Origin: Methylovulum psychrotolerans
Lineage (GTDB): Bacteria; Pseudomonadota; Gammaproteobacteria; Methylococcales; Methylomonadaceae
DNA length: 38,073 nucleotides
Reading direction: 5' to 3'
Assembly (NCBI RefSeq): GCF_002923755.1
Contig: NZ_PGFZ01000009.1
Span: forward strand, 118,288 to 156,360
Part shown: piece by piece, positions 6,428 through 27,126 of the stretch
Layout of the letters: each line of letters starts with the position of its first letter
Position numbering within the stretch: position 1 is the stretch's first letter
Position numbers and translations under genes: made by a program
Notes under the pieces: model-generated
The model's input: the letters and a program-made list of their open reading frames with translations, nothing else
Told to the model about the DNA's origin: nothing
Database searches by the model: none

Positions 6428-7899
6428 TGCCGGTTTTAGGGAAAAAATTTAGGCCGCCCGAAGCCTTTGACCAAGCCATAAACGGCTATTACCAACTGCT
6501 CCCTTCCAGGTTCGTGCGGCTGGACGGTAAACGCTATCTGCTCAGCAATGATGTCGGCGAGTTTTTGGTCGTCGGACGCGGACAGCTCGCCGATTACATA
6601 CAAAAAAAGGTGCCTAAAGGTTCTGATTTTTATCATGACCTGAAGTCCAAATGTTTTTTGGTTGACGGCGACTCTAATGTCGCCTTAGACCTATTGGCCC
6701 TTAAATACCGTACCAAAGCCCGGCGTATCTCACAGTTTACGGCGCTGCATATTTTTGTGGTTTCCTTACGTTGCGACTACACTTGCCGGTATTGCCAGGT
6801 TTCCCGGCAGACGGACGACAAACATGCCTTTGACATGTCGGAGGCGACGGCAGACAAGGCATTGGGGTTGGTGTTCAAAAGCCCTTCGCCTACCATAAAG
6901 ATTGAATTCCAAGGGGGGGAACCCTTACTTAATTTCAGCCTGATCCGATATATTGTCGCCAACGCAACCGCCGAAAATATCAGGCACAAAAAAAATTTGC
7001 AGTTTGTCATTACGACAAACTTAAGCCTCCTGACGGACGAAATGTTGTCGTTTTGCTCAAGCCACGGCATATTCCTGTCGACGTCGCTTGACGGCCCCGA
7101 GCAGTTGCATAACGCGAACCGCCCCCGTCCGGGAATGGACGGCCACAAGCTGACGGTTGAAGGGATTAAAAAAGCCCAGACGGCGTTAGGCCGTGACAAA
7201 ATAGGCGCATTGATGACGACGACTGAGAAAAGCCTTCCCGCCGCCAGGGCCATCATTGATGCCTATCTTGAAAACGGTTTGGACAGTATCTTTTTGCGTC
7301 CCCTCAGCCCGTACGGTTTTGCGGTGAAAACACGGCAGGCCTATAAGTATGACGTGGACAGATGGTTCGAATTCTATAAGGAAGGCTTGGATTATATTTT
7401 AGAAATAAACCGGCAAGGCCACCGGTTTGTCGAGCTTTACACCGAATTGGTTGTGAACAAGCTGCTGTCGCCTTTCAGCACGGGGTATGTCGATTTGCAG
7501 TCCCCTAGCGGGGCCGGCATTTCCGCAATCGTCTATAATTATGACGGCGACGTCTACGCCTCCGACGAAGCGAGGATGCTGGCCGAAATGGGCGACAAGG
7601 CGTTCCGTTTGGGTAATGTCCATGACGACGGCTATGAGGACATCATGTTGTCCGACACCCTGCTTGACATGTTGGAGTCCACCTTGTCGGAAAGCATCCC
7701 GATGTGTACGGACTGCGGTTTTTTGCCCTACTGCGGTACCGACCCCGTATACCACCACGCCACCCAAGGGGATATGGTCGGCAACAAGGCCTTAAGCGGG
7801 TTTTGCGGTAAGAATATGAAAATATTCCGCCATGTCGTTTTGTTGCTGGAAGACGACCCGGAAGCCCGGGAAACCTTGCTCGGTTGGGTGCGCCCATGA
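6427..7899 (+). CDS. hxsB: radical SAM maturase HxsB with SPASM-like C-terminus
   Basis: 490 residues. The radical SAM core begins with LRCDYTCRYC, a Cx3Cx2C cluster at C116, C120 and C123 for the [4Fe-4S]-SAM site. It continues with EFQGGEPLLNF (the GGE motif) and TTNLSLLTDEML. The C-terminus has a SPASM-like set of cysteines (MCTDCGFLPYCGTDP and later GFCGKN) for auxiliary clusters. Such enzymes install carbon or ether crosslinks in peptides. The substrate here is inferred to be the HXS core of HxsA. An N-terminal 100-residue region may be a peptide-binding domain. It overlaps hxsC by 4 bases (ATGA). Confidence 0.88.
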   Translation: MPVLGKKFRPPEAFDQAINGYYQLLPSRFVRLDGKRYLLSNDVGEFLVVGRGQLADYIQKKVPKGSDFYHDLKSKCFLVDGDSNVALDLLALKYRTKARRISQFTALHIFVVSLRCDYTCRYCQVSRQTDDKHAFDMSEATADKALGLVFKSPSPTIKIEFQGGEPLLNFSLIRYIVANATAENIRHKKNLQFVITTNLSLLTDEMLSFCSSHGIFLSTSLDGPEQLHNANRPRPGMDGHKLTVEGIKKAQTALGRDKIGALMTTTEKSLPAARAIIDAYLENGLDSIFLRPLSPYGFAVKTRQAYKYDVDRWFEFYKEGLDYILEINRQGHRFVELYTELVVNKLLSPFSTGYVDLQSPSGAGISAIVYNYDGDVYASDEARMLAEMGDKAFRLGNVHDDGYEDIMLSDTLLDMLESTLSESIPMCTDCGFLPYCGTDPVYHHATQGDMVGNKALSGFCGKNMKIFRHVVLLLEDDPEARETLLGWVRP

Positions 7900-14185: not shown

Positions 14186-16549
14186 ATGTCTAACTCTTAT
14201 CAATTCAAAAAATCAGCTTTATTTTCTGGGATATTTACTTTATCAGCTGAAAAGTTCTTACCCCACTTGGTTGGCAGTTACACCAATCCAGATGGTGGCA
14301 ACCTTCAAGAGATCATTTTCAAAAATGGTTTGGCCTATATATCGGCTAGCGAAAACGGGCTTCAAGTCTTAGATGTTTCAAACCCCGAATCACCAACAAA
14401 AGTGGGAAGCTTCAAATTGTACTACGGCATTGATGTTGATTTGTCTGGCAATTTAGCATACAACGCCGATTCAAGTTATGGCCTACGAATATTGGATGTT
14501 AGCAACCCTAATGCACCTGTAGAAATCGGTGGTTATGCAACAAAAGACAGCGGTTTTGTTTTTTGTAAATCAGTGACATTAAGTGGCTCGTTAGCTTACT
14601 TGGTAATGGAAGGTATTGATAGCGATTTTGCTGATAATGGTATATTGATTATTGATGTAAGCAACCCTTATAGACCAACAAAATTAAACAGCTTTCCTTC
14701 GGCTTTTGAGGCCACTGATCTTGCTATTAGCGGTAATCAGGCTTATGTCACCAGTGGAAATGCAGGGCTACTCATATATGATGTTAGCAATCCCTATAAT
14801 CCGCATCAGATTGGAAGCTATGATGTCGAAGGCTTTAGCTGTGTTGGCACAACGATCAATGGTAACTTTGCTTATGAGCTATATAATTTGTCCAACAGCA
14901 GGGGAACACCTAATATTCTGAAAGTCTTAGATATTAGCAACCCTTCTTCGCCACAACTCGTTGCCAATTACGATTCGCTGAATGTTTTAAGTGTCGTTGC
15001 TGAAGGGGAAAGCACTTATGCTTTTGCTGGGGATTTTAAACCTGATGGTTCTGGCTTCCTGCAAATCTTAGATTTGACCAACCCTAATAATCCAAGTTGG
15101 TTGACTGGGTTTGATGCTTCCCAAGGCATACCGATTAGAAGCGATGTGCCAATTACAGGCATAGCTATTCATGAAAATTTTGTTTATATCACGGAATCTT
15201 TTAACGGCTTGCAAGTGATTCAATTTAAGGACAATGTCCCCTTGCCTGTGTTAAACATCTCCTCCGTTGATGCGGATAAACCGGAAAGTAGCGGTGCTTT
15301 TCTTTTCAAAATCGAAAGGAGTGGAGATTTGAGCAGTAATTCTGTAGTCGATTACAGTGTGTCAGGCGGTCAAGCGACTAATGATGACTTTATTACAAAC
15401 TCAGGCAGTGTTGTTTTTAAACCTGGAGAGACCTCAAAAGTGGTGGTTATCAATGTCGCTAATGACAGTACATTTGAATCTGACGAAGCTTTCATTGTCG
15501 AATTATCAAATCCGTTAAATGCGACCTTAGGTAATGCCGAAGCGGTAGGTACTATAATCAATGACGATGCCAACCACACCATCCCCACAGAGGGTGACGA
15601 TGACTTGATCGGTACAGCAAACGATGATGTCATGAAAGGGCTTGGCGGTAATGATCAGCTATCCAGTTTGGATGGAAATGATAGCCTGAATGGCGGGGTG
15701 GGTGCAGATACGATGCAAGGTGGTGTAGGCAATGATACATACTATGTCGATAATGCGCGTGATATCGTTATTGAAACTTCAACTATAACAACCGAAATTG
15801 ACACTGTTTACAGTGAAACCAGCTTTACATTAAGTGAAAATGTTGAAAATTTAGTGCTGGTTGATTCAGTATGGGCCGTCAAGGCCATAGGAAACTCAAG
15901 CAACAACATTTTGGAAGGTAACCGCCTAGCAAACTTGATTGACGGTAAAAAAGGCATGGATACCATGATCGGCGGTGATGGGGACGACACCTATATGGTC
16001 GATAGTAGCAAAGATATTATCAAAGAAGTCGGTAGTGATTCGATTGCTGGCAACGATAGTGTCAAGTCCGCTGCTAGCTTCTTATTGCCAACCAATGTGG
16101 AAAATTTATATCTGATTGGAACATCTGCAATCAATGGTACTGGTAATGCGCTAAAGAACACGATAGTAGGTAATGCCTATGACAATGTCATTAATGGTGG
16201 TTTAGGTAAAGACACCTTAACTGGTGGTTTAGGCAAAGATACCTTCCTGTTTGATACACCGCTTAAGTCAAATGTCGATAAAATCACCGACTTTAAACCC
16301 GTTGATGACACGATTCGCTTGGAAAACGCCATTTTTACGAAATTAAAAATCACCACAGACCACCTATTGGATAAAGCAAATTTTGTAAAATCCACGTCCG
16401 CTGTTGACGGCAATGATTATGTCATCTACAACAGCACAACAGGCGCATTGTTTTATGATGCCGATGGTAATGGCTCTAGTGCAGCGGTACAGATTGCCAC
16501 CTTGGGCGCCGGATTGAATTTAACCCATGCCGATTTTTTGGTATCCTAA
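14186..16549 (+). CDS. RTX-type secreted protein with LVIVD repeats and Calx-beta domain
   Basis: 787 residues. Residues from about 40 to 345 hold at least six LVIVD-type repeats, each with a core such as GLQVLDVSNPESPTKVGSF or GLRILDVSNPNAPVEIGGY, likely forming a beta-propeller. Residues about 350-460 form a Calx-beta domain (YSVSGGQATNDDFI, SDEAFIVELSNPLNATLG, GTIINDD). From about 468 there are RTX calcium-binding nonapeptides (GLGGNDQL, GGVGADTMQGGVGNDTYYVD, GGDGDDTYMVD, GGLGKDTLTGGLGKDTF). The C-terminus, without Cys, fits export by a type I secretion system. No signal peptide and no transporter genes are nearby. Likely a surface or released adhesin. The composition is low in GC. Confidence 0.85.
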   Translation: MSNSYQFKKSALFSGIFTLSAEKFLPHLVGSYTNPDGGNLQEIIFKNGLAYISASENGLQVLDVSNPESPTKVGSFKLYYGIDVDLSGNLAYNADSSYGLRILDVSNPNAPVEIGGYATKDSGFVFCKSVTLSGSLAYLVMEGIDSDFADNGILIIDVSNPYRPTKLNSFPSAFEATDLAISGNQAYVTSGNAGLLIYDVSNPYNPHQIGSYDVEGFSCVGTTINGNFAYELYNLSNSRGTPNILKVLDISNPSSPQLVANYDSLNVLSVVAEGESTYAFAGDFKPDGSGFLQILDLTNPNNPSWLTGFDASQGIPIRSDVPITGIAIHENFVYITESFNGLQVIQFKDNVPLPVLNISSVDADKPESSGAFLFKIERSGDLSSNSVVDYSVSGGQATNDDFITNSGSVVFKPGETSKVVVINVANDSTFESDEAFIVELSNPLNATLGNAEAVGTIINDDANHTIPTEGDDDLIGTANDDVMKGLGGNDQLSSLDGNDSLNGGVGADTMQGGVGNDTYYVDNARDIVIETSTITTEIDTVYSETSFTLSENVENLVLVDSVWAVKAIGNSSNNILEGNRLANLIDGKKGMDTMIGGDGDDTYMVDSSKDIIKEVGSDSIAGNDSVKSAASFLLPTNVENLYLIGTSAINGTGNALKNTIVGNAYDNVINGGLGKDTLTGGLGKDTFLFDTPLKSNVDKITDFKPVDDTIRLENAIFTKLKITTDHLLDKANFVKSTSAVDGNDYVIYNSTTGALFYDADGNGSSAAVQIATLGAGLNLTHADFLVS

Positions 16550-16828: not shown

Positions 16829-18505
16829 CAGCAAACCCCACGGGCGTGGGGAAGACCCAATAAATACGGTCGAATAATTGCCGCCGTCAGAAACACCCCC
16901 ACGGGCGTGGGGAAGACCCAAAACGTCGCACTCCCTCAGCACCAACAACGGAAACACCCCCACGGGCGTGGGGAAGACACGCGGATGCCGTGAATCGAAT
17001 CTCTTAAGCTGGAAACACCCCCACGGGCGTGGGGAAGACAGCAATGGCGCTATAACACGAGAGTGGTACATGGAAACACCCCCACGGGCGTGGGGAAGAC
17101 CTCGTTGCTTAGGTTTAGGTCGAGGCCGATGTGAGAAACACCCCCACGGGCGTGGGGAAGACGGCAAATGGCTAATGACACAAATCAGTCAACGAGAAAC
17201 ACCCCCACGGGCGTGGGGAAGACATTTCCCCGTGAGCAATCGCCTGTGCAACGGCAGAAACACCCCCACGGGCGTGGGGAAGACGATAATGCCGCGCCTG
17301 ACAAGTCAGCGGTTACGGAAACACCCCCACGGGCGTGGGGAAGACCAAACGATTGAAGCACTCGTAATAATAGCCCTTGGAAACACCCCCACGGGCGTGG
17401 GGAAGACAATCCCGCTGTAAGACCGCCATAAATCGCTATAGAAACACCCCCACGGGCGTGGGGAAGACCCCAATACGGTCGATGTGGCTTGTGCAGTGGT
17501 GGAAACACCCCCACGGGCGTGGGGAAGACAAAATAATGTTGAATATAGAAATAGCTCTGATAGAAACACCCCCACGGGCGTGGGGAAGACAATATTGCCC
17601 ACAAGCAATTACGCGCCGACGTGGAAACACCCCCACGGGCGTGGGGAAGACAGCCCGCTGGACGGAATACCCATCGTAATACCAGAAACACCCCCACGGG
17701 CGTGGGGAAGACCGACATATAACAACACAACAGGCGTTTTTAACGAAACACCCCCACGGGCGTGGGGAAGACTCCGCCAGCGTGGTATTCTTTTGCGCCT
17801 TCTTGGAAACACCCCCACGGGCGTGGGGAAGACTTGGCTCAACGACATCCAGCGCAACGCCAACAAGAAACACCCCCACGGGCGTGGGGAAGACGTAAGG
17901 TTATACGAATCATAAAAAGGGGCTTGGGAAACACCCCCACGGGCGTGGGGAAGACGCCGGAGCCGAAGGATAGCTGATTAACGTACCGGAAACACCCCCA
18001 CGGGCGTGGGGAAGACAATACCGGGTATCCGGCCACAGATTTGCAAGAAGAAACACCCCCACGGGCGTGGGGAAGACAAATAGCAATACAAATCAATGGG
18101 TTGTTATTGAGAAACACCCCCACGGGCGTGGGGAAGACCTAGCCGATAAAGCGCGGGTTACGGTTCCCGCAGAAACACCCCCACGGGCGTGGGGAAGACC
18201 AGGGGCGGCGACTTACAGCAGCTCGACGGGTGGAAACACCCCCACGGGCGTGGGGAAGACATGCCGCCACCCCTTGCCCAGTAGCTCTTTCGGGAAACAC
18301 CCCCACGGGCGTGGGGAAGACTGTTCAACAATTGCTTGTGTGGATCGTCGCGCCAGAAACACCCCCACGGGCGTGGGGAAGACCCCAACCTGGGCGGATT
18401 TTTTACGACTTACCCGGAAACACCCCCACGGGCGTGGGGAAGACTTGAGTTTGCCCTAACTGCCATAGAGCGCGGTAGAAACACCCCCACGGGCGTGGGG
18501 AAGAC
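16829..18505 (-). CRISPR. type I-E CRISPR array, 28 repeats and 27 spacers
   Basis: The 28-base repeat reads, on the plus strand, GAAACACCCCCACG followed by GGCGTGGGGAAGAC. Repeats begin at 16829 (degraded in its first 12 bases), 16890, 16951, 17012, 17073, 17135, 17196 and so on to 18478. Spacers are mostly 33 bases; four are 34 and one is 32. The reverse complement, which starts GTCTTCCCCACG and ends GGTGTTTC, matches the orientation of the E. coli I-E repeat. Transcription is therefore predicted on the minus strand from the leader at the right. The degraded repeat at 16829 is the old, trailer end, as expected. The stem is CCCCAC/GTGGGG with a GCCC loop, the substrate for Cas6e. Confidence 0.97.
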
Positions 18506-18581: not shown

Positions 18582-18965
18582 TCAAAATGGCGGCTTTTTA
18601 TGGGTGGTGACGGATGCTTCTGACGGCGTTTGTACGGCATTGTTTGTTTCTGGCAAAGGGGCTTCAGTCTGGTTGGCGGAGTAAAAGTCATCTTTTTCCA
18701 ACACCAGTTGCAAACCTGAAATGTCAATCATACTTCGCCGCGTGTCGCCGATACCTTGAATCTCGTAACCCGGCGGTTGATTGATCCGGCGAAAAATCAT
18801 TACGCCGCTGTTGGGCGGGCAATGCCGGTAAAGGTAGTCGATTACTTTTTTGGCTACGGAGTCTTTTAGTCCCGACACAAAGACGTTCGGGCGTGGCTCG
18901 ACAAACCACAGCTTCATCCTGCCCCTCACCGCAGGCGGCAGGTCATTCGCTATTACGATTAGCAT
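18582..18965 (-). CDS. cas2: Cas2, type I-E, with C-terminal extension
   Basis: 127 residues. It opens MLIVIANDLPPAVRGRMKLW then FVEPRPNVFVSG, the signature of Cas2 of type I-E (CasF/Cas2e). The core ends around GLQLVLEK near residue 92. About 35 residues rich in Thr, Pro, Ser and Glu follow (APLPETNNAVQTPSEAS), which are absent from the usual 94-97 residue protein and look disordered. It pairs with Cas1 to integrate spacers. It overlaps the cas1 end by 23 bases. Confidence 0.93.
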   Translation of the reverse strand: MLIVIANDLPPAVRGRMKLWFVEPRPNVFVSGLKDSVAKKVIDYLYRHCPPNSGVMIFRRINQPPGYEIQGIGDTRRSMIDISGLQLVLEKDDFYSANQTEAPLPETNNAVQTPSEASVTTHKKPPF

Positions 18966-19833
18966 GTTGTTTTACCCCCAAACTGTCTTCAATGTCTTTT
19001 GCCACTATGGTTAATAAATCCATGTCAATGACCCGTTTTCTAAAGGCGTTTGCCACTTTATGTTTGTTATAACGCCCGCCCATTTCCAGGGTCAAGGCAA
19101 AAGCCAAATCAATGCACAACTGTTCTTTATACAAATCCGCCAAATCATAAATGAACGGCAAGGGGCTGCCGGAATGGATAAAGCCAATATGCGGCGAATA
19201 ACCTAGGGCATGGACAGCCGAGGTTAAAATACCATACAAAGCGGCATTGGTGGACGTTAATATCTGGTTGGTTATATCGCCCATTTCAAATTTGCCCGGC
19301 AGGTAGCTCCGGCCTTTCCAGCCGACTTTATACTGTTGGGCTTTTTGTTCGTATAACTCGCGGACACGGTAACCTTCCATGCCCATCATTTCTTTCAGGG
19401 TCTTCCCCGTCAGTTCGGCTTTGGGGAAACGCTTGGCGAACATGCGCCGTGCCACGTCCACTGATTTTTTGTCATCACAGGCTATCAGCATTTGTTTTTT
19501 CAGGTTTCGGGTGTTGCTGGTGGGTGTGACACCGGCGGCGTAAAACAACAGCGAGTCTTCGCCTACCCAACACACCGAGCAATTCGCCGCCGCCGTGACT
19601 TTAATTGCTTCATGGGTCACGGTTGTGCCAGGGCCTAGCAACAGGCAGTTGAGGGTGGCGATGGGCAACCGCACCACATTACCGTCACAATCGAGCCATT
19701 TCACCGAGCTGTCGTCAATCTCTAAGCGTCCGCGCTCCAAGTAAATAAAAGGGTATTTGTCTTTTATTTGTGGCAGGGTGTCGCGGGTGACTTTGATGAT
19801 TAAACGGGTGATGTCGTTGTTGTCTTCAGCCAT
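18943..19833 (-). CDS. cas1: Cas1, type I-E spacer integrase
   Basis: 296 residues. Catalytic metal residues are seen as E153 in GMEGYRVREL, H220 in GFIHSGSPLPF and D233 in DLADLYKEQL. These match E141, H208 and D221 of E. coli Cas1. The protein forms the Cas1-Cas2 complex that inserts new spacers at the leader end. It starts about 60 bases after the cas5e stop and overlaps cas2. Nothing is missing, so adaptation should be functional. Confidence 0.95.
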   Translation of the reverse strand: MAEDNNDITRLIIKVTRDTLPQIKDKYPFIYLERGRLEIDDSSVKWLDCDGNVVRLPIATLNCLLLGPGTTVTHEAIKVTAAANCSVCWVGEDSLLFYAAGVTPTSNTRNLKKQMLIACDDKKSVDVARRMFAKRFPKAELTGKTLKEMMGMEGYRVRELYEQKAQQYKVGWKGRSYLPGKFEMGDITNQILTSTNAALYGILTSAVHALGYSPHIGFIHSGSPLPFIYDLADLYKEQLCIDLAFALTLEMGGRYNKHKVANAFRKRVIDMDLLTIVAKDIEDSLGVKQHANRNSE

Positions 19834-19895
19834 AAAATCCCCAAACAGGTTTGCCGATATTACAAAACATTAGGTTGTTAAAGAGCATGGGCACC

Positions 19896-20630
19896 TTAGT
19901 CCGCGCTTGAACCGGCGCTTATTACGGTTACCCGGCGGTCACGATAGCGTTTTTGTTCGCCAAATTGTAACGGCACATCCGTTAGCGTTAACACTTCACC
20001 CTCGTGTTCGCCTTCCTGGACACGAAAATCCAGCAGCAAGTGTTTTTCCGTTGCGATAGCGACGGCTTGAGCGTCCGCTTCCGCTTCGGTGCCGAAGGCG
20101 CCGCGATACACCATATCACTCGGCACACAGGCTTTACGCCCCAAGTATAAGTCCCAAACGGGCTGTTGTAAGGCTTGGGCAAGGGCTTGCGCCTTATCAG
20201 TAGGCACTTCTAGCAGCACGGCAAAATACGCGTCTTGCAGATAATAACGGTAAGTCATTTTTGTACCCCCGCCGACGGCTTTTTTACCTTCGGCGGTTTT
20301 GGGGATGAGCAAGGTTTGCCACGGGTCGCCGTCGTCATAGCCGCTGCCGACCATCTGAAAATCACGCAGTAAGGGTTCAGGGTCATGTTTGACGGTTGCG
20401 CCGTCGGCATCGCTTCGGCTCCGCGCAAACGCCAAGACCGTCTGTTTTAGCGGTGCAAATTCCGCCAACAGTTCGGTTTGTTCGCCGCCTGCGCCCAGCG
20501 CACAGCACAGCAAGCCCAACACCCCCGATTTGGTCGGGAAGTTAAGGGTGTCGCGCCGCCCGAATTTGGAATCATGCCCCCACGCTTGCAGCGGGGCTTG
20601 CAACCAGAGCAATAAATACCGGCTTGCCAT
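19896..20630 (-). CDS. cas5e: Cas5e (CasD) Cascade subunit
   Basis: 244 residues. The start YLLLWLQAPLQAWGHDSKFG then RRDTLNFPTKSGVLGLLCCA is the classic Cas5e opening. The protein caps the 5' handle of crRNA in Cascade. Later parts include the glycine-containing GAFGTEAEADA and DVPLQFGEQKRYRDRRV. The gene follows cas7e with essentially no gap, so it is co-translated. Length is close to the family norm of about 225-250. Confidence 0.94.
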   Translation of the reverse strand: MASRYLLLWLQAPLQAWGHDSKFGRRDTLNFPTKSGVLGLLCCALGAGGEQTELLAEFAPLKQTVLAFARSRSDADGATVKHDPEPLLRDFQMVGSGYDDGDPWQTLLIPKTAEGKKAVGGGTKMTYRYYLQDAYFAVLLEVPTDKAQALAQALQQPVWDLYLGRKACVPSDMVYRGAFGTEAEADAQAVAIATEKHLLLDFRVQEGEHEGEVLTLTDVPLQFGEQKRYRDRRVTVISAGSSAD

Positions 20631-20631
20631 G

Positions 20632-21771
20632 TTAAGCCCCGACGTGGGTTTTTAAGGCCGCCACCAGGTCGTCAATGCTGAAAGTGTCGTCTTCGCCAAA
20701 GGTGTAGTCACCTTGTTTGCCAAATAATGAGCCGTACAGTTTTTCTTTTTTCGCCAGATAGTCGCTCAATGCTTGGATGCTCGGTTGCAAATAGCCGCCC
20801 TCTTTGGCTTTGATGGGGGCTTCAAACGGCACTTGCAGACGCTGGCCTTTACGCACCAACACTTTGGCGAATTCCCAGGCGGATGCGCCGGACATGGTGG
20901 TTTGGCGGGCGCTGGGTACGGCAACAAACAAGGCTTTGGTGAAGGCTTCGACCGCGTCGGCGAGGTTTTGCCCGGCAAGCGATTGGTAAAGCTGGCCTAG
21001 GTTTAGGCTGATGTAGCGGTAATAGGTCGCGGAGTTGAATTCCAGGCTGCCCATGTGCGCGGAACCGGGTTCGGTTTGTTTATCATCCAATGCGGTAAAA
21101 AACTCCACTTCGGAACTGACCTTGTGGGTGGATATGGCGTGGGCAAACGAGGCGGCGGCTTCAACATTCAGTTCCGCCGCTTGCGCCACCATGCGCCCAA
21201 ACAAGACGATGTCGAGCGCGTCGACGGCTTCGGCGACATTGCCGATCAAGGCCGCCATTTCCTTGGCTTGTTTTTTGGCATCTTTTTGGGTGATGACGAG
21301 GTCGGGGTTAAAGCCGGCTTGGGCAAATGCGTCAGCCAAGAGGGCGATTTCTTTCGGGCTTAAAAATAATAAGGTGTCGGTTTTTTCTTGCGCGGGATCA
21401 GCGTCGGCTTCTTCAAGGGCTTCGGTGCCTTTGGCCTTTTTGGGTTTTTTGTCGTCTTTTTTCTTGATGAAGATTTGTTCTATTTTGTCGCCGCAGGCTT
21501 TGGCCTGTTCATTTTCCGCGCCTTTGTCGCGGCAGGCGGAGGCCACCATTTCTGAAATCAGTTTGGTTCTTGCGCCGTGGACAACGCCCAAATCGTGCAG
21601 GGCTAAGCGTACCTGACGTTTCCAGCATTGTGAGCTGACGCGGGCACGCGGCACGCCGCCCACCATGGCTGATTTTGGGCTGCCGACATCATCGCGGTTT
21701 AAGCAACTGACCGGAAACGATTGCAAAATATGAAACTCGATAACGTGACCTTTAAACGGATTTGTACTCAT
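20632..21771 (-). CDS. cas7e: Cas7e (CasC) Cascade backbone subunit
   Basis: 379 residues. Typical Cas7e text is present: IEFHILQSFPVSCLNRDDVG, then VGGVPRARVSSQCWKRQVR. Later come the SLEFNSATYYRYISLNL segment and TTMSGASAWEFAKVLVRKG. Six copies of this protein form the Cascade backbone along crRNA. Residues about 103-131 are a lysine- and acid-rich insertion (KKKDDKKPKKAKGTEA) compared with the E. coli protein of 363 residues; it is probably a surface loop. A solitary CRISPR-like repeat lies 32 bases before its ATG. Confidence 0.95.
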   Translation of the reverse strand: MSTNPFKGHVIEFHILQSFPVSCLNRDDVGSPKSAMVGGVPRARVSSQCWKRQVRLALHDLGVVHGARTKLISEMVASACRDKGAENEQAKACGDKIEQIFIKKKDDKKPKKAKGTEALEEADADPAQEKTDTLLFLSPKEIALLADAFAQAGFNPDLVITQKDAKKQAKEMAALIGNVAEAVDALDIVLFGRMVAQAAELNVEAAASFAHAISTHKVSSEVEFFTALDDKQTEPGSAHMGSLEFNSATYYRYISLNLGQLYQSLAGQNLADAVEAFTKALFVAVPSARQTTMSGASAWEFAKVLVRKGQRLQVPFEAPIKAKEGGYLQPSIQALSDYLAKKEKLYGSLFGKQGDYTFGEDDTFSIDDLVAALKTHVGA

Positions 21772-21803
21772 TTGCCTGCCTTAAATTAAAAATAAAGTGA
21801 AAA

Positions 21804-21831
21804 GAAACACCCCCACGCGTGTGGGGAAAAT
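21804..21831 (-). repeat. solitary CRISPR-like repeat inside the cas operon
   Basis: The 28 bases on the plus strand read GAAACACCCCCACG then CGTGTGGGGAAAAT. They match the array repeat at 24 positions. In transcript orientation (minus strand) the six-base stem CCCCAC/GTGGGG is intact, the loop is ACGC instead of GCCC, and the last 13 bases including the 8-base 5' handle (GGTGTTTC) are identical to the array repeat. The two changes in the first three bases lie outside the stem. It sits between cas6e and cas7e, in the sense orientation of the mRNA. It could be a Cas6e cleavage site in the cas transcript, or a one-repeat pseudo-crRNA with regulatory function. Confidence 0.85.
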
Positions 21832-21868: not shown

Positions 21869-22501
21869 TTAAATGGGCACAATCTGTAACAGTCCGGCCC
21901 CAAATGCCCGTCCGCGTCCTATGCCGTTTTGAAAGCTTTGGACAAATTTGGCCTGATCGGTCACAGCCAAGCGCCCGATTAGTTTGGCTTGGCTTTGGGT
22001 GATGGTTTGCTCGTTTTTTTGGAAGCGTTTCACGTCAATTTCCCTGACTTCCAAATGTGCGGGGCTGACGGTAAAGCCCCACTGCGGGGCTTTGTTGACA
22101 AACCAGTCGGCTATTTTTTCGCGGGTGCCGGTGTCGTCACCGGATAACGCGGTTATGGCGACCAGCTTTTTCGTGGTGTTGTCGCGCTTGGTGGGGTTGA
22201 TGACGACTTCAAAACGGTAGTGGCTGTTAGCCAAAAAGCTGTCGGCAATTTTTTTAATGGTCAGTTCGCCGTGTTCGGGGAGGTTCGGCTGGCGGTTGGA
22301 GAGGATTAAAATTTTCCGCCCATGAAAATCTCCGCCTTTGTCGGCATATAAGATGCCGCTGGGCAGGCTTTTTTGTTTGTCCGCTTCGCTGCGGATGTCG
22401 GCAAACAGGCCATAAACGACGCGGTGAATGGAGTAGGCGTCGGTGACTTTTAAGGCTTTCAGGTCGGCGCGGCTTAAGTGCAAGGCACTGGCAATCATCA
22501 T
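21869..22501 (-). CDS. cas6e: Cas6e (CasE) crRNA endonuclease
   Basis: About 210 residues from ATG 22501, which overlaps the cse2 stop (ATGA-type junction). An in-frame start at 22549 would add 16 residues. Family marks are AYSIHRVVYGLFAD near the N-terminus, with the active-site His region, and the glycine-rich C-terminal GIGRGRAFGAGLLQI. The enzyme cuts pre-crRNA at the base of the repeat stem and stays bound to the 3' hairpin. Its place directly after cse2 and before cas7e is unusual for type I-E, where it normally follows cas5e. Confidence 0.93.
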   Translation of the reverse strand: MMIASALHLSRADLKALKVTDAYSIHRVVYGLFADIRSEADKQKSLPSGILYADKGGDFHGRKILILSNRQPNLPEHGELTIKKIADSFLANSHYRFEVVINPTKRDNTTKKLVAITALSGDDTGTREKIADWFVNKAPQWGFTVSPAHLEVREIDVKRFQKNEQTITQSQAKLIGRLAVTDQAKFVQSFQNGIGRGRAFGAGLLQIVPI

Positions 22502-23040
22502 GCGTCGGCCTCCCCGGTTGTGGTATGGCGGTAGAAGTTTTGCGCCCAACGGGATTTGACGCGTTGCCGCTGGTCGTCACTATGAAAGCCGCGTAAATCT
22601 TGCAATAGCGACGCGTAATCCAAGGGGATGCCTGCTTTGGAATCGATCAAGCTAAACAAGGGGCGTAGCACACGGCAGGCTTCGTCAATATCATCACAGG
22701 CCAGCAAGCGCCGTAATTTGGCTTTGGCTTGGTCGCTGTTGTTGCCGTCTTCGTAGCAACGGGCTATCGCTTCTCCGATGCGCATGGCACCGTTTTGGCT
22801 GGCTTTTGCTTTTGCGATGGCCGAGGCAATGGTGGCGTAAGGGAGGCGTTCGTAATCTTTGTCAATGTCGATAAACCGTGCGAGATATTCCCAGCATTGG
22901 TATTCGGTGGCCGGATTGTCGGCACGTTTAAATGCCGCCGCCACGCCATTGTCGGTTTGCGTCAAGTCGATAATGAAGTTAACAAATTGCGTGCTTTTAT
23001 TGGGTTGTGTGCTTTTATGGGATCGCGTCATTTCGCTCAT
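22498..23040 (-). CDS. cse2: Cse2 (Cas11e) Cascade small subunit
   Basis: 180 residues. Identification rests on position (between cas8e and cas6e, overlapping each by 4 bases), the all-helical composition and pieces such as YQCWEYLARFIDIDKDYERL, then LRRLLACDDIDEACRVLRPL and LDYASLLQDLRGFHSD, all of which fit CasB/Cse2. Two copies line the belly of Cascade and stabilise the R-loop. Nothing unusual was seen. Confidence 0.9.
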   Translation of the reverse strand: MSEMTRSHKSTQPNKSTQFVNFIIDLTQTDNGVAAAFKRADNPATEYQCWEYLARFIDIDKDYERLPYATIASAIAKAKASQNGAMRIGEAIARCYEDGNNSDQAKAKLRRLLACDDIDEACRVLRPLFSLIDSKAGIPLDYASLLQDLRGFHSDDQRQRVKSRWAQNFYRHTTTGEADA

Positions 23041-24542
23041 GCTTTAGCCTGTTCTGGTTGGTTTGCATCTTTTAAGTAGCTGCCAAGCTTCGGTAAATTG
23101 CCTGCCCACGCCGTCAATTGCCTTGCGCTATGGTTGGGGCAGAAACTGTCGTAGGATTTTTGGGCAAATTGTGCGAAGGTTTTGCGTATGGCTTTGGCTT
23201 GGTTGCCGTCGGCGCAAGCATTCACTAGGGTTTGAAACTGCCGCTCGCACAGTTGCCAATATAAATGGCTTGCCATCGCCGCCTGCTTTTTGCCTTCGGC
23301 TTTTTGGCTTTTGAAATAATTGAGGGTGGCGCTGTAAACGATTTTGGAGAGTTGGTCGAGTTCCGCCATTTCGAGCTGTAAATTGCTGAACCACATCTCG
23401 CCAAAGTCCTCTTGCGGCAACATCAGCGCCGACTCGACAAAGTCATCGCTGCCCCCAGTATATTGTTCGCCGGCATTGCTGCTGACCCGCAAGCCGCCCG
23501 ACCAAATGCCCAAGGTGTCGGTGCGGTCGCGGGCGCGGCCTAAACCGAGGCGCAACTGGTAACAATCGAACCCTTGGCTGCCGTTTTGTGAGAGGAAACC
23601 CAGCAAAGCCGTTAAGAAACGCCAAGGGCGTTTTTCTGGGTCGACCCAGATCGCTTTCGGGTCTTTGCCGGAAAAATCCGCTGAGACGCTAGGATCAAGT
23701 AACCCGTCTTTATAACCCAAATGGGCGATGCCTTCGGAATAGTGCAAGCCTGTGTCGGCCAATAAACAAAACCGTGATAGCGGCAATAACCGCCCCATGA
23801 GGCTGTTTTGCAAATGTTTTGCGGTTGGGCAATTTTCGCCGTCTGGCATGGTTTCCCATGGGGCGATACCTAAGCCGTCGGCATACGGCAAGCTGTTAAT
23901 TTGGTCTTGGCTAAACACATTGAGCCATAAGGTTTGCCATAGGTTGCCGCCGAGCAAAAAATTGTGCATAAAGCCCATGAACCCTAGCGAGCTTCCTGGC
24001 CTTCCGGTGGCGGGCTTGCCTTTGTCGTTGGTTTTGCCTGAGTAACCCGCTGACAAAACGACGCTGTTGTCGGTTTTTTTGCCGCCTAAGCCAAAGCCCA
24101 TCAGCACGACAATCAGCACGGCTTTTTCAGCGTCGCTTAAGGTTTTTTCGACTTGTGACTGGGTTAATACGGTGGTGTTGCCTGTGGAAATTTCGGCAAA
24201 TACCGCGCCATAAGGCTGTACACTGGCGGCTTTAATGGCGGGCATTTGCAAAAACGGTTTATCGCCATACAAGTCGAAGCTATCGCGCCATTGCTCCAGA
24301 TAAGCCAGGCACTTTTCCGCCATGCCTGCCGCGCCTAAAGTTGCCCAAGCGTTTTCATCTGCTGGCGTGTACGCGGCTTGGGCGATGGCGAGCAGCAATT
24401 TGGTCAAGGCGATTTTTTGTACCGGATTGCCGCCTAAGGCACGGTAGCTGGGGTTGGTAAAAAGCTGTTTTAAACTGACCCGCCCAACATCGGCAATCGG
24501 TATCCAAGGTTCATCAATTAAAGAAAATCTGGTTTCTGTCAT
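23037..24542 (-). CDS. cas8e: Cas8e (Cse1/CasA) Cascade large subunit
   Basis: 501 residues, the usual size. The start FSLIDEPWIPIADVGRVSLK, the segment LYGDKPFLQMPAIKA, and LLGGNLWQTLWLNVFSQDQI are characteristic of Cse1. It recognises the PAM and recruits Cas3. A 40-base gap separates it from cas3 upstream; it overlaps cse2 by 4 bases downstream. Confidence 0.95.
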   Translation of the reverse strand: MTETRFSLIDEPWIPIADVGRVSLKQLFTNPSYRALGGNPVQKIALTKLLLAIAQAAYTPADENAWATLGAAGMAEKCLAYLEQWRDSFDLYGDKPFLQMPAIKAASVQPYGAVFAEISTGNTTVLTQSQVEKTLSDAEKAVLIVVLMGFGLGGKKTDNSVVLSAGYSGKTNDKGKPATGRPGSSLGFMGFMHNFLLGGNLWQTLWLNVFSQDQINSLPYADGLGIAPWETMPDGENCPTAKHLQNSLMGRLLPLSRFCLLADTGLHYSEGIAHLGYKDGLLDPSVSADFSGKDPKAIWVDPEKRPWRFLTALLGFLSQNGSQGFDCYQLRLGLGRARDRTDTLGIWSGGLRVSSNAGEQYTGGSDDFVESALMLPQEDFGEMWFSNLQLEMAELDQLSKIVYSATLNYFKSQKAEGKKQAAMASHLYWQLCERQFQTLVNACADGNQAKAIRKTFAQFAQKSYDSFCPNHSARQLTAWAGNLPKLGSYLKDANQPEQAKA

Positions 24543-24582
24543 TAAATATTTCCGTTATCGGTTAGTAAATAGCCGGGCTTTT

Positions 24583-27126
24583 TTAGCTTTGGTAGCCAAA
24601 ATCTTCGTTGTAACTCAGTTGGTGATTCGGCAACGCCTGCCCGCCGGAGAGGCTTTTTAAGTTGTCGGCGCCGTCAACTAGGGCAATCCTCAGCAAGCTT
24701 TCGTCATGTGCCGGGTCGCCCAGATAGAAATACTCTTTTAGCCAAGCCAATTCGCTTATTGCCACGGCTTGCGGGGCAAGGTAATCGGCGACTTGTACGG
24801 TGTTTTGCAGCAAGGTGGCCGCCAAATCACGCCACTGGGTTTGGTCGCGGATTTTTAGGTCACGCGGCAATACCCGTTTGCTGCCGTCCAATAAGGTGAT
24901 TTCGGTTGCCGATTTGTCGGCGGTGTGGCGGTAACTTTTTAGCAGCAATACTTGGACGCTGTCCTGTTCGCTATAGCGGGTGCCGGCGCGGTTTTCGGAC
25001 AAGGTTTTCCCGGCCTTGGACAAACCGACTAAGGCCAATTGCTTTAATTTGGCGCGGGTTTTTGCCAATTCGGCTTGATAGGCCAGCATCGGGCCTTGTT
25101 CCGCTTGTTCGCTATAGGTGGCTTCAATCAGCGGGCGGATGTCGTGGGGCAAAGAAACGCTCTCGCGTTGTTGCCAAACCGCTAAGCTACGGCACAGGAC
25201 ATAAGGGCTGTAGACTTTGGCGGTTTTGCCAAATTGCTGTTTGGCATCGGCAACGGCGGCATCGAAATCTGGGGTAAGGAGCCAAGCCTCACAGGTTGCC
25301 GTGGTAGGGCGTGGGGTATCGCCATGCCGCCATAACCGCCCTAGCCGTTGCAACAGCATGTCTGTGGGGGCAAAACGGCTGATGAGAAAGTCCGCGTCAA
25401 TGTCGAGCGATTGTTCCAAAATTTGCGTGCCCACCAAAATACGGCCTTGGGCTTGGCGGGCTTGGTGGTTGTCTTTGCCATATAAATCTACCCACAGCTT
25501 TTCCTTGGCGGCGCGGTCGGTTTTTAAGAACCGTGAATGTAAGAGGCCGCAGGCAATGGGCATGTCCATGGCGGACAATTGTTTATAAATGGCTTGCGCT
25601 TCGGCAACGGTGTTTTCAATCCATAAGACTTGTTGGCCTTGTGCGGCGCGGTCTAAGGCTTCTTGAATGGCTAGGTCATCCTGTTGGCAACACTGGATGG
25701 CAACTTCGCTGGCGGTCGGGCTGGGTGCGGCAAGCTCAAGCAATGCGCCTTGTTTGGCTTTGGCGGAAATCAGCGGGTATTGGTGGGAACATACCGTTTG
25801 CCCCAATAATGCGCCGCGCCGCTGTTGGGTTAGGGTGGCGCTCAAAATAATCACGGTGCAATGCAGGCCTTGCAAGGCCGTGACCAGTTCATCCAAGAGC
25901 GTTCCTGTGTAAGCGTCATAGCTATGCACTTCATCCAATATCACAACTTTTCCGGCCAGGCCGAAGGCGCGGACGAAACCGTGTTTGACATTCATCACCG
26001 CCATTAAGGCTTGGTCGATTGTCCCGACGGCGAAGGGGGCGAGGATGCCGCGTTTGCCACCTTCAAACCATGAACCGTTGGGCTGGCCTTCCACGCCCAG
26101 TTCGGTTTGTTTTAACCAGGCATTGCCGTGCAGCAACAGGGCTTTTTGATGCGGGCTGTCAGCGGCCAGGATTTTTGTTAAGAACTGGGTGACCCGTTCG
26201 TGGATTTTGTCGGAGGTCAGTTGGGTCGGTAGCGCGAAGTAAAGCCCCGTGGCTTGTTGGGTGGCCATTAATTGGTAGGCGACATACAGCGCCGCTTCGG
26301 TTTTGCCGATGCCCATCGGCGCTTCCAGCACATACACGCCGGGTTGTTGGCCGCTGCTGATCAATTGTTGCTGGATGGCGCGGGGCTCAAAGCCGAACAG
26401 GTCAACAAAACGTAAATCGGTCTGTAAGCTAGGCCGCACAAAACCGGCATTATCCAGGGCTTTCTGGATGTTAGGCCGCCAATCGTGGCTTGGGTCATCA
26501 AACAGTGAACCTGATCCTATCCAATCCGACACGGTGGTCAGCCCCGCCAAGGCTTTGGCTTGTAAGTCGTTGCTGACAATTGGGAAATCACAATTGAGCA
26601 AGTGTTTAAGCCCGTCCAGCAATTCGCCGCGCCGCGCTTGCCAAGCTTTGCCGCCAAATACGGCATCTTCGGCTTTATGTACTAAGTTGGGCGAGTAGCC
26701 ATGATGTTGGCCTAGAATTTCGGGGATATAGCGGCCTACGTTTAGGGCTTCGGCGGTCGCTTGGCTGACCCCTGCATGGCCTCCCCACAATTTTTCGGTT
26801 TCAGGATTGGCAGCCGATAATTCTGGCTTGGCGTTGTTTTGATAATGTTCGGTGCCACGGTAAATTTTTTCTTGGAATGTGGGGCTGACTTTACCGAGGT
26901 CATGGCAAGCGGCAACCAGTTCCGAACCCGGCGGAAACAACTCGGCACTTAACCAGTTTGGCATTCTGCCAAGCAATGCTTTTGCCACTTCCCCAACAAT
27001 ATGGCAGTGGTTCAGTATTTTGCGGCCCGGTTGTTTTTGCGCGTAGGTTTTGGCTAAACAGTCGTCAAGCAGCAAAGCGGCTGGCTGGTTTGGTATGGTT
27101 TTCTGAGATTTTTGCGGCTTGAACAT
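24583..27126 (-). CDS. cas3: Cas3 nuclease-helicase, type I-E
   Basis: 847 residues. The N-terminal HD nuclease domain shows the His in HCHIVGEVAKAL, the HD pair in VAACHDLGKVSPTF (H75 D76), H117 in GGHAGVSQ and GQHHGYSP at 139-146. The helicase part has Walker A in LEAPMGIGKTEAAL (K275), the DEVH box in VVILDEVHSYDAY (398-401), SATL and QRLGRLWRHGD. It degrades target DNA after Cascade binding. It is first in the cas transcript. All catalytic motifs are present. Confidence 0.97.
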   Translation of the reverse strand: MFKPQKSQKTIPNQPAALLLDDCLAKTYAQKQPGRKILNHCHIVGEVAKALLGRMPNWLSAELFPPGSELVAACHDLGKVSPTFQEKIYRGTEHYQNNAKPELSAANPETEKLWGGHAGVSQATAEALNVGRYIPEILGQHHGYSPNLVHKAEDAVFGGKAWQARRGELLDGLKHLLNCDFPIVSNDLQAKALAGLTTVSDWIGSGSLFDDPSHDWRPNIQKALDNAGFVRPSLQTDLRFVDLFGFEPRAIQQQLISSGQQPGVYVLEAPMGIGKTEAALYVAYQLMATQQATGLYFALPTQLTSDKIHERVTQFLTKILAADSPHQKALLLHGNAWLKQTELGVEGQPNGSWFEGGKRGILAPFAVGTIDQALMAVMNVKHGFVRAFGLAGKVVILDEVHSYDAYTGTLLDELVTALQGLHCTVIILSATLTQQRRGALLGQTVCSHQYPLISAKAKQGALLELAAPSPTASEVAIQCCQQDDLAIQEALDRAAQGQQVLWIENTVAEAQAIYKQLSAMDMPIACGLLHSRFLKTDRAAKEKLWVDLYGKDNHQARQAQGRILVGTQILEQSLDIDADFLISRFAPTDMLLQRLGRLWRHGDTPRPTTATCEAWLLTPDFDAAVADAKQQFGKTAKVYSPYVLCRSLAVWQQRESVSLPHDIRPLIEATYSEQAEQGPMLAYQAELAKTRAKLKQLALVGLSKAGKTLSENRAGTRYSEQDSVQVLLLKSYRHTADKSATEITLLDGSKRVLPRDLKIRDQTQWRDLAATLLQNTVQVADYLAPQAVAISELAWLKEYFYLGDPAHDESLLRIALVDGADNLKSLSGGQALPNHQLSYNEDFGYQS

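What the first reader, a model, noticed from the sequence alone, without database searches (positions are those of the whole stretch)
21804..21831. Solitary CRISPR repeat between cas6e and cas7e may be a Cas6e cut site in the cas mRNA
A 24/28 match to the array repeat sits in the sense strand of the cas transcript, 32 bases before the cas7e ATG. The stem and the 5' handle are unchanged, while only the loop and outermost bases differ. Selection for the Cas6e-recognised parts is suggested. Cas6e could cut between cas6e and cas7e to tune Cascade subunit levels, or the repeat could yield a mini-crRNA like CreA or CreR regulators known from other CRISPR types.
Basis: partly seen in the sequence, partly recalled or inferred. 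Interest (0 to 1): 0.8.

Follow-up and report, generated by a model that had tools for sequence, protein, structure and literature searches.

The report
CRISPR repeat embedded in cas mRNA
A bacterium from a methane-eating group carries a lone copy of its CRISPR repeat inside the messenger RNA for its own CRISPR proteins, where the RNA-cutting enzyme Cas6e would be expected to cut, and the hairpin stem has been kept in several relatives, which hints that the system trims its own message.

Summary
In detail: 21804-21831 (- strand) matches the array repeat at 24 of 28 bases, sits on the sense strand of a type I-E cas operon between cas6e and cas7e, and ends 32 bases before the cas7e ATG.

It is not isolated. 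Of 20 order genomes matched with Cas7e (311 searched), 13 carry standalone repeats at cas-gene junctions and 6 have one at cas6e|cas7e; so does one Baikal MAG outside the order. At the thresholds used, none of the 61 other named loci does.

All 24 intra-operon elements found are sense-strand. Across seven cas6e|cas7e copies the stem is 91% identical, while fourfold sites (41%) and the loop (39%) look unconstrained. The stem appears selected.

Twelve elements are repeat-spacer-repeat mini-arrays. Four at cas3|cse1 match their own gap with AAC before the match (CreR-like). The window's single copy has no such target, and single copies mostly lose the 5' handle (2 of 12 intact) but keep the stem.

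Best reading: a Cas6e binding/cutting site in the cas mRNA, not a guide. Cutting and effect are untested.

The parts
21804..21831 (-). solitary (standalone) CRISPR repeat, 24/28 to the array repeat, sense strand of the cas operon
21821..21826 (-). 5' arm of the hairpin stem, CCCCAC
   Evidence: stem 91% identical over the pairs of seven cas6e|cas7e copies
21817..21820 (-). loop ACGC (array: GCCC); loops at this junction are 39% identical, about the fourfold-site level
21811..21816 (-). 3' arm of the hairpin stem, GTGGGG; predicted Cas6e cut between 21811 and 21810 (position by analogy with E. coli Cas6e, recalled)
   Evidence: inference
21803..21810 (-). 5'-handle-like GTGTTTCT, predicted new 5' end of the cas7e message
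   Evidence: inference
21772..21803 (-). 32-base AT-rich cas7e leader with an AAGG/AGG ribosome-binding-like sequence (by eye); no second repeat
21869..22501 (-). cas6e (TIGR01907)
20632..21771 (-). cas7e (TIGR01869), long allele with a lysine-rich internal insertion
22498..27126 (-). upstream genes of the same operon: cse2 22498-23040, cse1 23037-24542, cas3 24583-27126
18582..20630 (-). downstream genes: cas5e 19896-20630, cas1 18943-19833, cas2 18582-18965
16890..18505 (-). CRISPR array, 27 perfect repeats, same direction as the operon

Best explanation
The element is a Cas6e site embedded in the cas messenger RNA. The co-encoded Cas6e binds the hairpin and cuts at its base (predicted between 21811 and 21810), splitting the transcript into a cas3-cse1-cse2-cas6e piece, whose 3' end is a hairpin capped by Cas6e, and a cas7e-cas5e-cas1-cas2 piece with a new 5' end 39 bases before the cas7e start. 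This would let the two halves of the operon have different lifetimes, and would make the cut depend on free Cas6e, so that it is frequent when crRNA precursors are scarce and rare when they occupy Cas6e. It belongs to a family of sense-strand standalone repeats at cas-gene junctions in type I-E operons, found here in Methylococcales genomes and one Baikal MAG; some members are one-spacer mini-arrays. Shown: position, strand, stem conservation, family. Inferred: co-transcription, cutting, effect on expression, dependence on Cas6e supply.
For: Stem and handle match the repeat of the array that the co-encoded Cas6e should process, and the hairpin is in the predicted RNA fold. Same junction, same strand, 21-32 bases before the cas7e start in seven loci. 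Pooled pairwise identity: stem 0.91, handle 0.71, loop 0.39, fourfold sites 0.41. All 24 intra-operon elements found, in 14 loci, are sense-strand. On 33 of their 37 repeats, 98.4% of pair cells are paired (94.7 in shuffles) and 4 of 6 pairs have changes on both sides (0.7 in shuffles). Single copies keep the stem and mostly lose the handle, as expected for a Cas6e site rather than a guide. In the Racr paper a solitary I-F repeat is bound and cut by Cas6f, and handle changes still allowed substantial inhibition (PMC10651486, passages).
Against: No RNA or biochemical data. At this junction absent from 14 of 20 order genomes and from the 61 other named loci, so not needed by I-E systems. Four sister loci carry an unrelated repetitive hairpin at the same junction, so any hairpin might do. 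The 113-nt region does not fold better than its shuffles (z -0.72, 46 of 200 fold as well). Single copies could be collapsed mini-arrays (L031 against L036). The element meets a crude terminator pattern. In one search the number of further pair types is no higher than in shuffles (6 against 5.6), and 5 of the 8 both-side changes come from mini-array first repeats, one from a last repeat and two from single copies (L031; L076 at cas3|cse1).
Confidence: 0.6

Rival explanations
1. Relic: a mini-array once inserted at the junction collapsed by recombination between its two repeats, leaving one repeat that Cas6e may still cut, without selected function.
For: L031 and L036 share the cas5|cas1 flanks but have two repeats and one repeat respectively; L058 against L032 likewise; L033 still has a two-repeat mini-array at cas6e|cas7e. 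Single copies look like the last repeat of mini-arrays: handle intact in 2 of 12 against 1 of 12.
Against: Stems stay 91% identical where fourfold sites and loops are near 40%; a neutral relic would have decayed. Of the four cas6e|cas7e loci whose array was seen on the contig (window, L031, L033, L036), three have a loop unlike their array's, which argues against recent recopying; L036 matches its array.
Confidence: 0.17
2. Generic mRNA hairpin or partial terminator: the repeat serves as a stem that protects the upstream message's 3' end or attenuates transcription, independent of Cas6e.
For: One search lists it first among terminator-like sites (stem then TGTTTCTTTT). L032, L035, L058 and L059 have another hairpin at the same junction; it has 12, 1, 4 and 6 copies in their genomes within 3 mismatches. 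L065 has a further one.
Against: The stem sequence itself, not only pairing, is kept and equals that of the array repeat. GTG separates the six-pair stem and the U-run. The first array repeat meets the same terminator pattern, and terminator-like hits in the region are near shuffle level (23 against 17.8, sd 4.3).
Confidence: 0.15
3. Single-repeat guide (CreR/CreA-like): Cas6e cutting releases an RNA whose handle plus cas7e leader directs Cascade to a cas promoter or another gene.
For: Handle intact in the window and in L036. CreR-like mini-arrays occur at cas3|cse1 in four sister loci with AAC before the match. CreTA modules with one ectopic repeat are described (abstract of PMC9458426).
Against: No downstream repeat; best operon seed match 6, below the shuffle mean of 7.8; genome seed matches 5 against 4 for the control; handle not intact in 10 of 12 single copies.
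Confidence: 0.05

Closest known systems
CreR (cas-regulating crRNA-like RNA; seen here through the review PMC12737573, passages)
   Same: CRISPR-like RNA element tied to cas expression. The L032, L033, L036 and L059 mini-arrays at cas3|cse1 behave as CreR predicts: the first spacer matches the own cas3|cse1 gap with AAC before the match.
   Different: The window copy is a single repeat without second repeat or matching target; the proposed action is on the mRNA, not guided repression of a promoter.
CRISPR-derived RNA regulatory elements, Shmakov et al. 2023 NAR (title and reference seen; content recalled, paper not held)
   Same: Conserved standalone repeats in CRISPR-cas loci, often as mini-arrays (recalled).
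   Different: That work, as recalled, stresses mini-arrays as guides; a non-guide single repeat at cas6e|cas7e could be in its tables and I could not check.
Racr / viral solitary repeat units (PMC10651486, passages)
   Same: Solitary repeat that engages Cas6 by its stem; handle changes still allowed substantial inhibition.
   Different: Racrs lie in mobile elements and inhibit the host's CRISPR; this is in the host's own cas operon.
Synthetic operons with Csy4/Cas6 cut sites between cistrons (recalled)
   Same: Endoribonuclease site between genes decouples their expression.
   Different: Engineered; here natural and inferred.
CreTA toxin-antitoxin (PMC9458426, passages)
   Same: Ectopic, degenerated repeats; the paper links degeneration to stability against recombination.
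   Different: No toxin RNA was sought at the window junction; no guide target found.

Membership tests
Type I-E CRISPR-Cas operon | cas3, cse1, cse2, cas7e, cas5e, cas6e, cas1e, cas2e | tested here: met
   NCBIfam; seven of eight are over the cut-off of an I-E-specific model; Cas3 passes the general core and HD models but not the cut-off of model PRK09694
CreR | spacer flanked by two (degenerate) repeats | tested here: not met
   single repeat; no second repeat within the window's operon at the thresholds used
CreR | partial match to a cas promoter region with PAM | tested here: not met
   window score 6, shuffle mean 7.8; in sister loci L032, L033, L036 spacer 1 and L059 a match with AAC lies in the own cas3|cse1 gap
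CreTA | adjacent toxin RNA repressed by the guide | not tested
   no search for a toxin RNA was made; the gap holds only the repeat, a 37-base and a 32-base flank
Racr / viral solitary repeat unit | lies in a phage or other mobile element | tested here: not met
   lies inside a complete cas operon of the bacterium; the wider neighbourhood was not examined for mobile genes
Cas6e substrate | repeat stem-loop of the co-encoded system, sense strand | tested here: met
Cas6e substrate | actual Cas6e-dependent cleavage | not testable with these tools
   needs RNA ends or purified enzyme
Intrinsic terminator | GC stem directly followed by a U-run | tested here: inconclusive
   pattern met but with GTG before the run; the first array repeat meets it too

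The most novel reading that the evidence does not exclude
A cis-acting 'self-Racr' sensor: free Cas6e, not occupied by pre-crRNA, binds and cuts the hairpin at the 3' end of its own message, stays bound, and seeds a Cas7 filament back along the cas6e coding region, as reported for Racr RNA with Cas6f and Cas7f. That would shut down further Cas6e synthesis and cap Cascade assembly when crRNA is scarce, a post-transcriptional counterpart to CreR acting on mRNA instead of on promoters.
Probability: 0.15. Interest if true: 0.85.

Novelty: new variant of a known kind. Interest (0 to 1): 0.6.

Why it matters
How I-E systems balance Cas6e, six Cas7 per Cascade and crRNA supply after transcription is, to my knowledge, poorly known. 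A natural Cas6 cut site inside a cas operon would be a direct, simple control loop, testable with one stem mutation. It would extend the known roles of standalone repeats from guides acting on promoters to processing signals acting on the message. The methanotroph I-E loci also offer a natural series: mini-arrays, single copies, other hairpins and none, at the same junctions.

Tried and rejected
Guide reading for the window copy: operon and genome seed searches gave nothing above control. Strict link between the repeat and the long Cas7e allele: suggested by the first relatives but broken by L054 (short Cas7e with repeat) and, by protein length, by long-Cas7e loci without the repeat at this junction, such as L032, L035, L038, L040, L076, L077 and L087. 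Operon targets for the other mini-array spacers: none above shuffles for L031, L032, L035, L059 and L087 at cas5|cas1, L033 at cas6e|cas7e, L036 spacer 2 (8 of 100 shuffles reach it) and L087 upstream of cse1; L031, L035, L054 and L087 are cut contigs without cas3. The L033 cas6e|cas7e spacer had no phage match, and its seed pattern matched G069 12 times against 14 for the control. L054 and L080: no convincing match, without shuffles. Other I-E lineages: in 27 Cas6e loci from 26 of 369 class genomes (scan for perfect 6-bp C-rich stems with 4-base loops, stretches of up to about 3.7 kb), a lone repeat beside cas6e was seen in the window and in L155, whose sequence and place match L054. L168 has one repeat within 50 bases of the stretch's end, so an array cannot be told from a lone copy there; L152 and L166 have a GC-rich stem that does not look like a repeat.

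Literature: a non-guide Cas6 site in cas mRNA was not met, the searches aimed at it (listings only; openly licensed PMC papers only), nor in passing, nor in the passages read of PMC8616872. The two most relevant papers (Shmakov 2023; the CreR paper) are not held or were not found, so prior description cannot be excluded.

Full report
OBSERVATION. The window holds a complete type I-E operon on the - strand, in the order cas3, cse1, cse2, cas6e, cas7e, cas5e, cas1, cas2, followed by a 27-repeat array in the same direction. At 21804-21831 lies ATTTTCCCCACACGCGTGGGGGTGTTTC, 24 of 28 to the array repeat. The two stem arms and the handle are unchanged; the four mismatches are in the 5' flank (positions 1, 3) and the loop (12, 14). 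The loop-free pattern matches exactly 28 places in the window, the 27 array copies and this one, and none of 100 shuffles at up to 3 mismatches. In the whole 5.19 Mb genome, up to 3 mismatches add only two places, last repeats of a second array type on other contigs, against 1 match of the reversed control.

RELATIVES. Of 121 genomes searched with Cas6e, 10 match; of 311 order genomes searched with Cas7e, 20 match, in 21 loci. Cas6e is the gene before cas7e in 79 of 80 named loci; L031 is cut. A standalone repeat at cas6e|cas7e occurs in the window, L030, L031, L033, L034, L036 and L054. The first six are six of the 20 order genomes (G000, G010, G005, G069, G054, G004). L054 is a Baikal gammaproteobacterial MAG; G369, the class-search genome with the same repeats at the same places, is in another family of the class and 82% complete. 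Counting all junctions, 13 of the 20 order genomes have at least one standalone repeat. Of the other 61 named loci (80 less 18 and L054), none has one inside the operon at the thresholds used; L080 (Spirochaetales) has a pair upstream of cas3. Several loci are on short contigs, so absences at outer junctions are weaker than at cas6e|cas7e, which was seen in all 61.

ANATOMY OF THE FAMILY. There are 24 intra-operon elements with 37 repeats in 14 loci (recount): seven at cas3|cse1 (two of them on contigs that start downstream of cas3), seven at cas6e|cas7e, ten at cas5|cas1, all sense-strand. The one antisense entry inside an operon is the palindrome of a sense element. Two degenerate hairpins of L036, at cas1|cas2 and before its first cas3|cse1 repeat, are not counted. 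Twelve elements are mini-arrays (repeat, about 33-base spacer, repeat; L036 has three repeats) and twelve are single. Repeats that precede a spacer keep GTGTTTC in 13 of 13 cases; last repeats in 1 of 12; single copies in 2 of 12, the window and L036 at cas6e|cas7e; Fisher p for the first against the third is 2e-5. Classes were assigned by eye. Single copies therefore resemble a last repeat: a place for Cas6e, not the start of a guide.

SELECTION. Over all 21 pairs of the seven cas6e|cas7e copies (L033 by its second repeat), stem identity is 0.91, handle 0.71, loop 0.39; fourfold sites of cas6e and cas7e (cas7e only for pairs with L031) give 0.41. The loop drifts like unconstrained sequence while the stem does not. 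On 33 of the 37 repeats (one identical copy omitted; three with other loop lengths left out), 98.4% of pair cells are paired and 4 of 6 pairs show changes on both sides, against 0.7 in shuffles; sliding the partner destroys the signal; the number of further pair types is not raised (6 against 5.6). Of the 8 cells changed on both sides, 5 are in mini-array first repeats, 1 in a last repeat and 2 in single copies (L031, and the weak L076 copy at cas3|cse1), so covariation supports the family more than the window copy. Relatedness is not removed by these controls.

GUIDES IN SISTER LOCI. In one search I tested 12 mini-array spacers and 2 single-copy leaders against the own operon for a seed match, ignoring every sixth position (recalled property of I-E Cascade). 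Four cas3|cse1 guides (L032, L033, L036 spacer 1, L059) match a place that starts in the same cas3|cse1 gap, with scores 14, 13, 13 and 12, reached in 0 of 100 shuffles each, and all four have AAC before the match. Whether these places are promoters was not tested. In the window array the first base of the spacer unit, by analogy the PAM-derived base, is C or T in 25 of 26, in line with AAC. These are CreR-like. The other eight spacers and two (L054, L080) showed no convincing match; L031, L035, L054 and L087 are cut contigs without cas3. The five cas5|cas1 spacers differ between loci with near-identical flanks (L032, L035, L059), so that place seems to swap spacers.

THE WINDOW COPY. It has no second repeat, and treating its leader as a guide gives a best score of 6 against a shuffle mean of 7.8 and five genome matches with up to 2 mismatches against four for the reversed control. 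What remains is the hairpin. Because stem and handle equal the array repeat of the same system, and cas6e ends 37 bases upstream, cutting is the simplest expectation. The cut would separate cas3-cse1-cse2-cas6e from cas7e-cas5e-cas1-cas2. This is inference: no RNA evidence exists here, and co-transcription is assumed (no promoter-like site was listed in the junction).

HISTORY. Cas6e, Cas7e and Cas1 trees of 29, 29 and 26 rows, from 30 chosen of 85 loci, differ. Cas7e exists as a long allele with a lysine-rich insertion and a short one (aligned for eight loci), swapped among close relatives (L033/L095, L030/L066). The repeat mostly accompanies the long allele, not strictly: L054 is short with it, and L032, L035, L038, L040, L076, L077 and L087 are long without it at this junction. 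L031 and L036 at cas5|cas1 show the same flanks with two repeats and one, so gain or loss of a repeat-spacer unit happens. In G005 a PIN-domain gene (Pfam PF01850, over cut-off) and a short partner gene with a sub-threshold Phd/YefM antitoxin match follow cas6e on one contig (L021); on the contig that carries cas7e (L031) the repeat follows the end of the same kind of partner gene, 28 bases before cas7e.

RIVALS. A generic hairpin is the strongest alternative in kind, since L032, L035, L058 and L059 have another hairpin at the same junction, repeated elsewhere in three of the four genomes. The strict stem sequence argues for Cas6e. A terminator is possible, but the first array repeat meets the same loose pattern. 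A pure relic conflicts with stem conservation.

PRIOR WORK. The Racr paper (passages) shows a solitary I-F repeat bound and cut by Cas6f, handle changes that still allow inhibition, and an estimated Cas6f-Cas7f filament on the RNA upstream of the cut. The CreTA paper (passages) says ectopic repeats degenerate and become stable against recombination. CreR is seen through a review (passages). Shmakov 2023 is not held and the CreR paper was not found in the library. A natural non-guide Cas6 site in cas mRNA was not met in the searches named in Tried and rejected, which does not prove it is undescribed.

VERDICT. A real, conserved, lineage-restricted feature; most likely a Cas6e site in the cas mRNA (0.6). 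New variant of a known kind.

Noticed in passing
19876-19887 (- strand), cas5e|cas1 gap: TGCTCTTTAACA, a boxA-like antitermination motif (motif recalled). A loose pattern is found in the cas5|cas1 gap of 20 of 76 loci with both genes, 18 of them of this order.
   Followed up: partly
L032 6833-6921; L033 about 7008-7097; L036 816-965; L059 2995-3083: Mini-arrays at cas3|cse1 whose first spacer matches the own gap with AAC before the match: CreR-like candidate autoregulators in I-E operons.
   Followed up: yes
L031 2254-2342; L032 11878-11966; L035 4682-4770; L059 7646-7734; L087 5225-5313: One-spacer mini-arrays at cas5|cas1 behind the boxA-like motif; spacers differ between loci with near-identical flanks; in L032, L035 and L059 followed by a terminator-like hairpin, seen by eye.
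   Followed up: partly
20632-21771 and relatives: Cas7e occurs as long (lysine-rich insertion) and short alleles that are swapped among close relatives; cause unknown.
   Followed up: partly
L028 2650-3045 and L029 2627-2715 (own genome, contigs C36, C41): A second array type (CCGTTCCCCACGCCCGTGGGGATAAACCG); on L028 next to weak Cas1/Cas2 matches; both followed by a long run of CCCTAATTGCG/CCCTAGTTGCG-like units.
   Followed up: no
L021 239-844 (- strand) and L031 1-300: PIN-domain gene and a short partner gene (weak antitoxin match) after cas6e in one relative (G005), next to the standalone repeat.
   Followed up: partly
IMG/VR loci L178-L208: 31 viral-contig stretches hold TTTTCCCCACNNNNGTGGGG, some as single copies, possible Racr-like units.
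   Followed up: no
14355-15093: Six diverged 40-base repeats (61% or more alike) inside the ORF 14186-16549.
   Followed up: no
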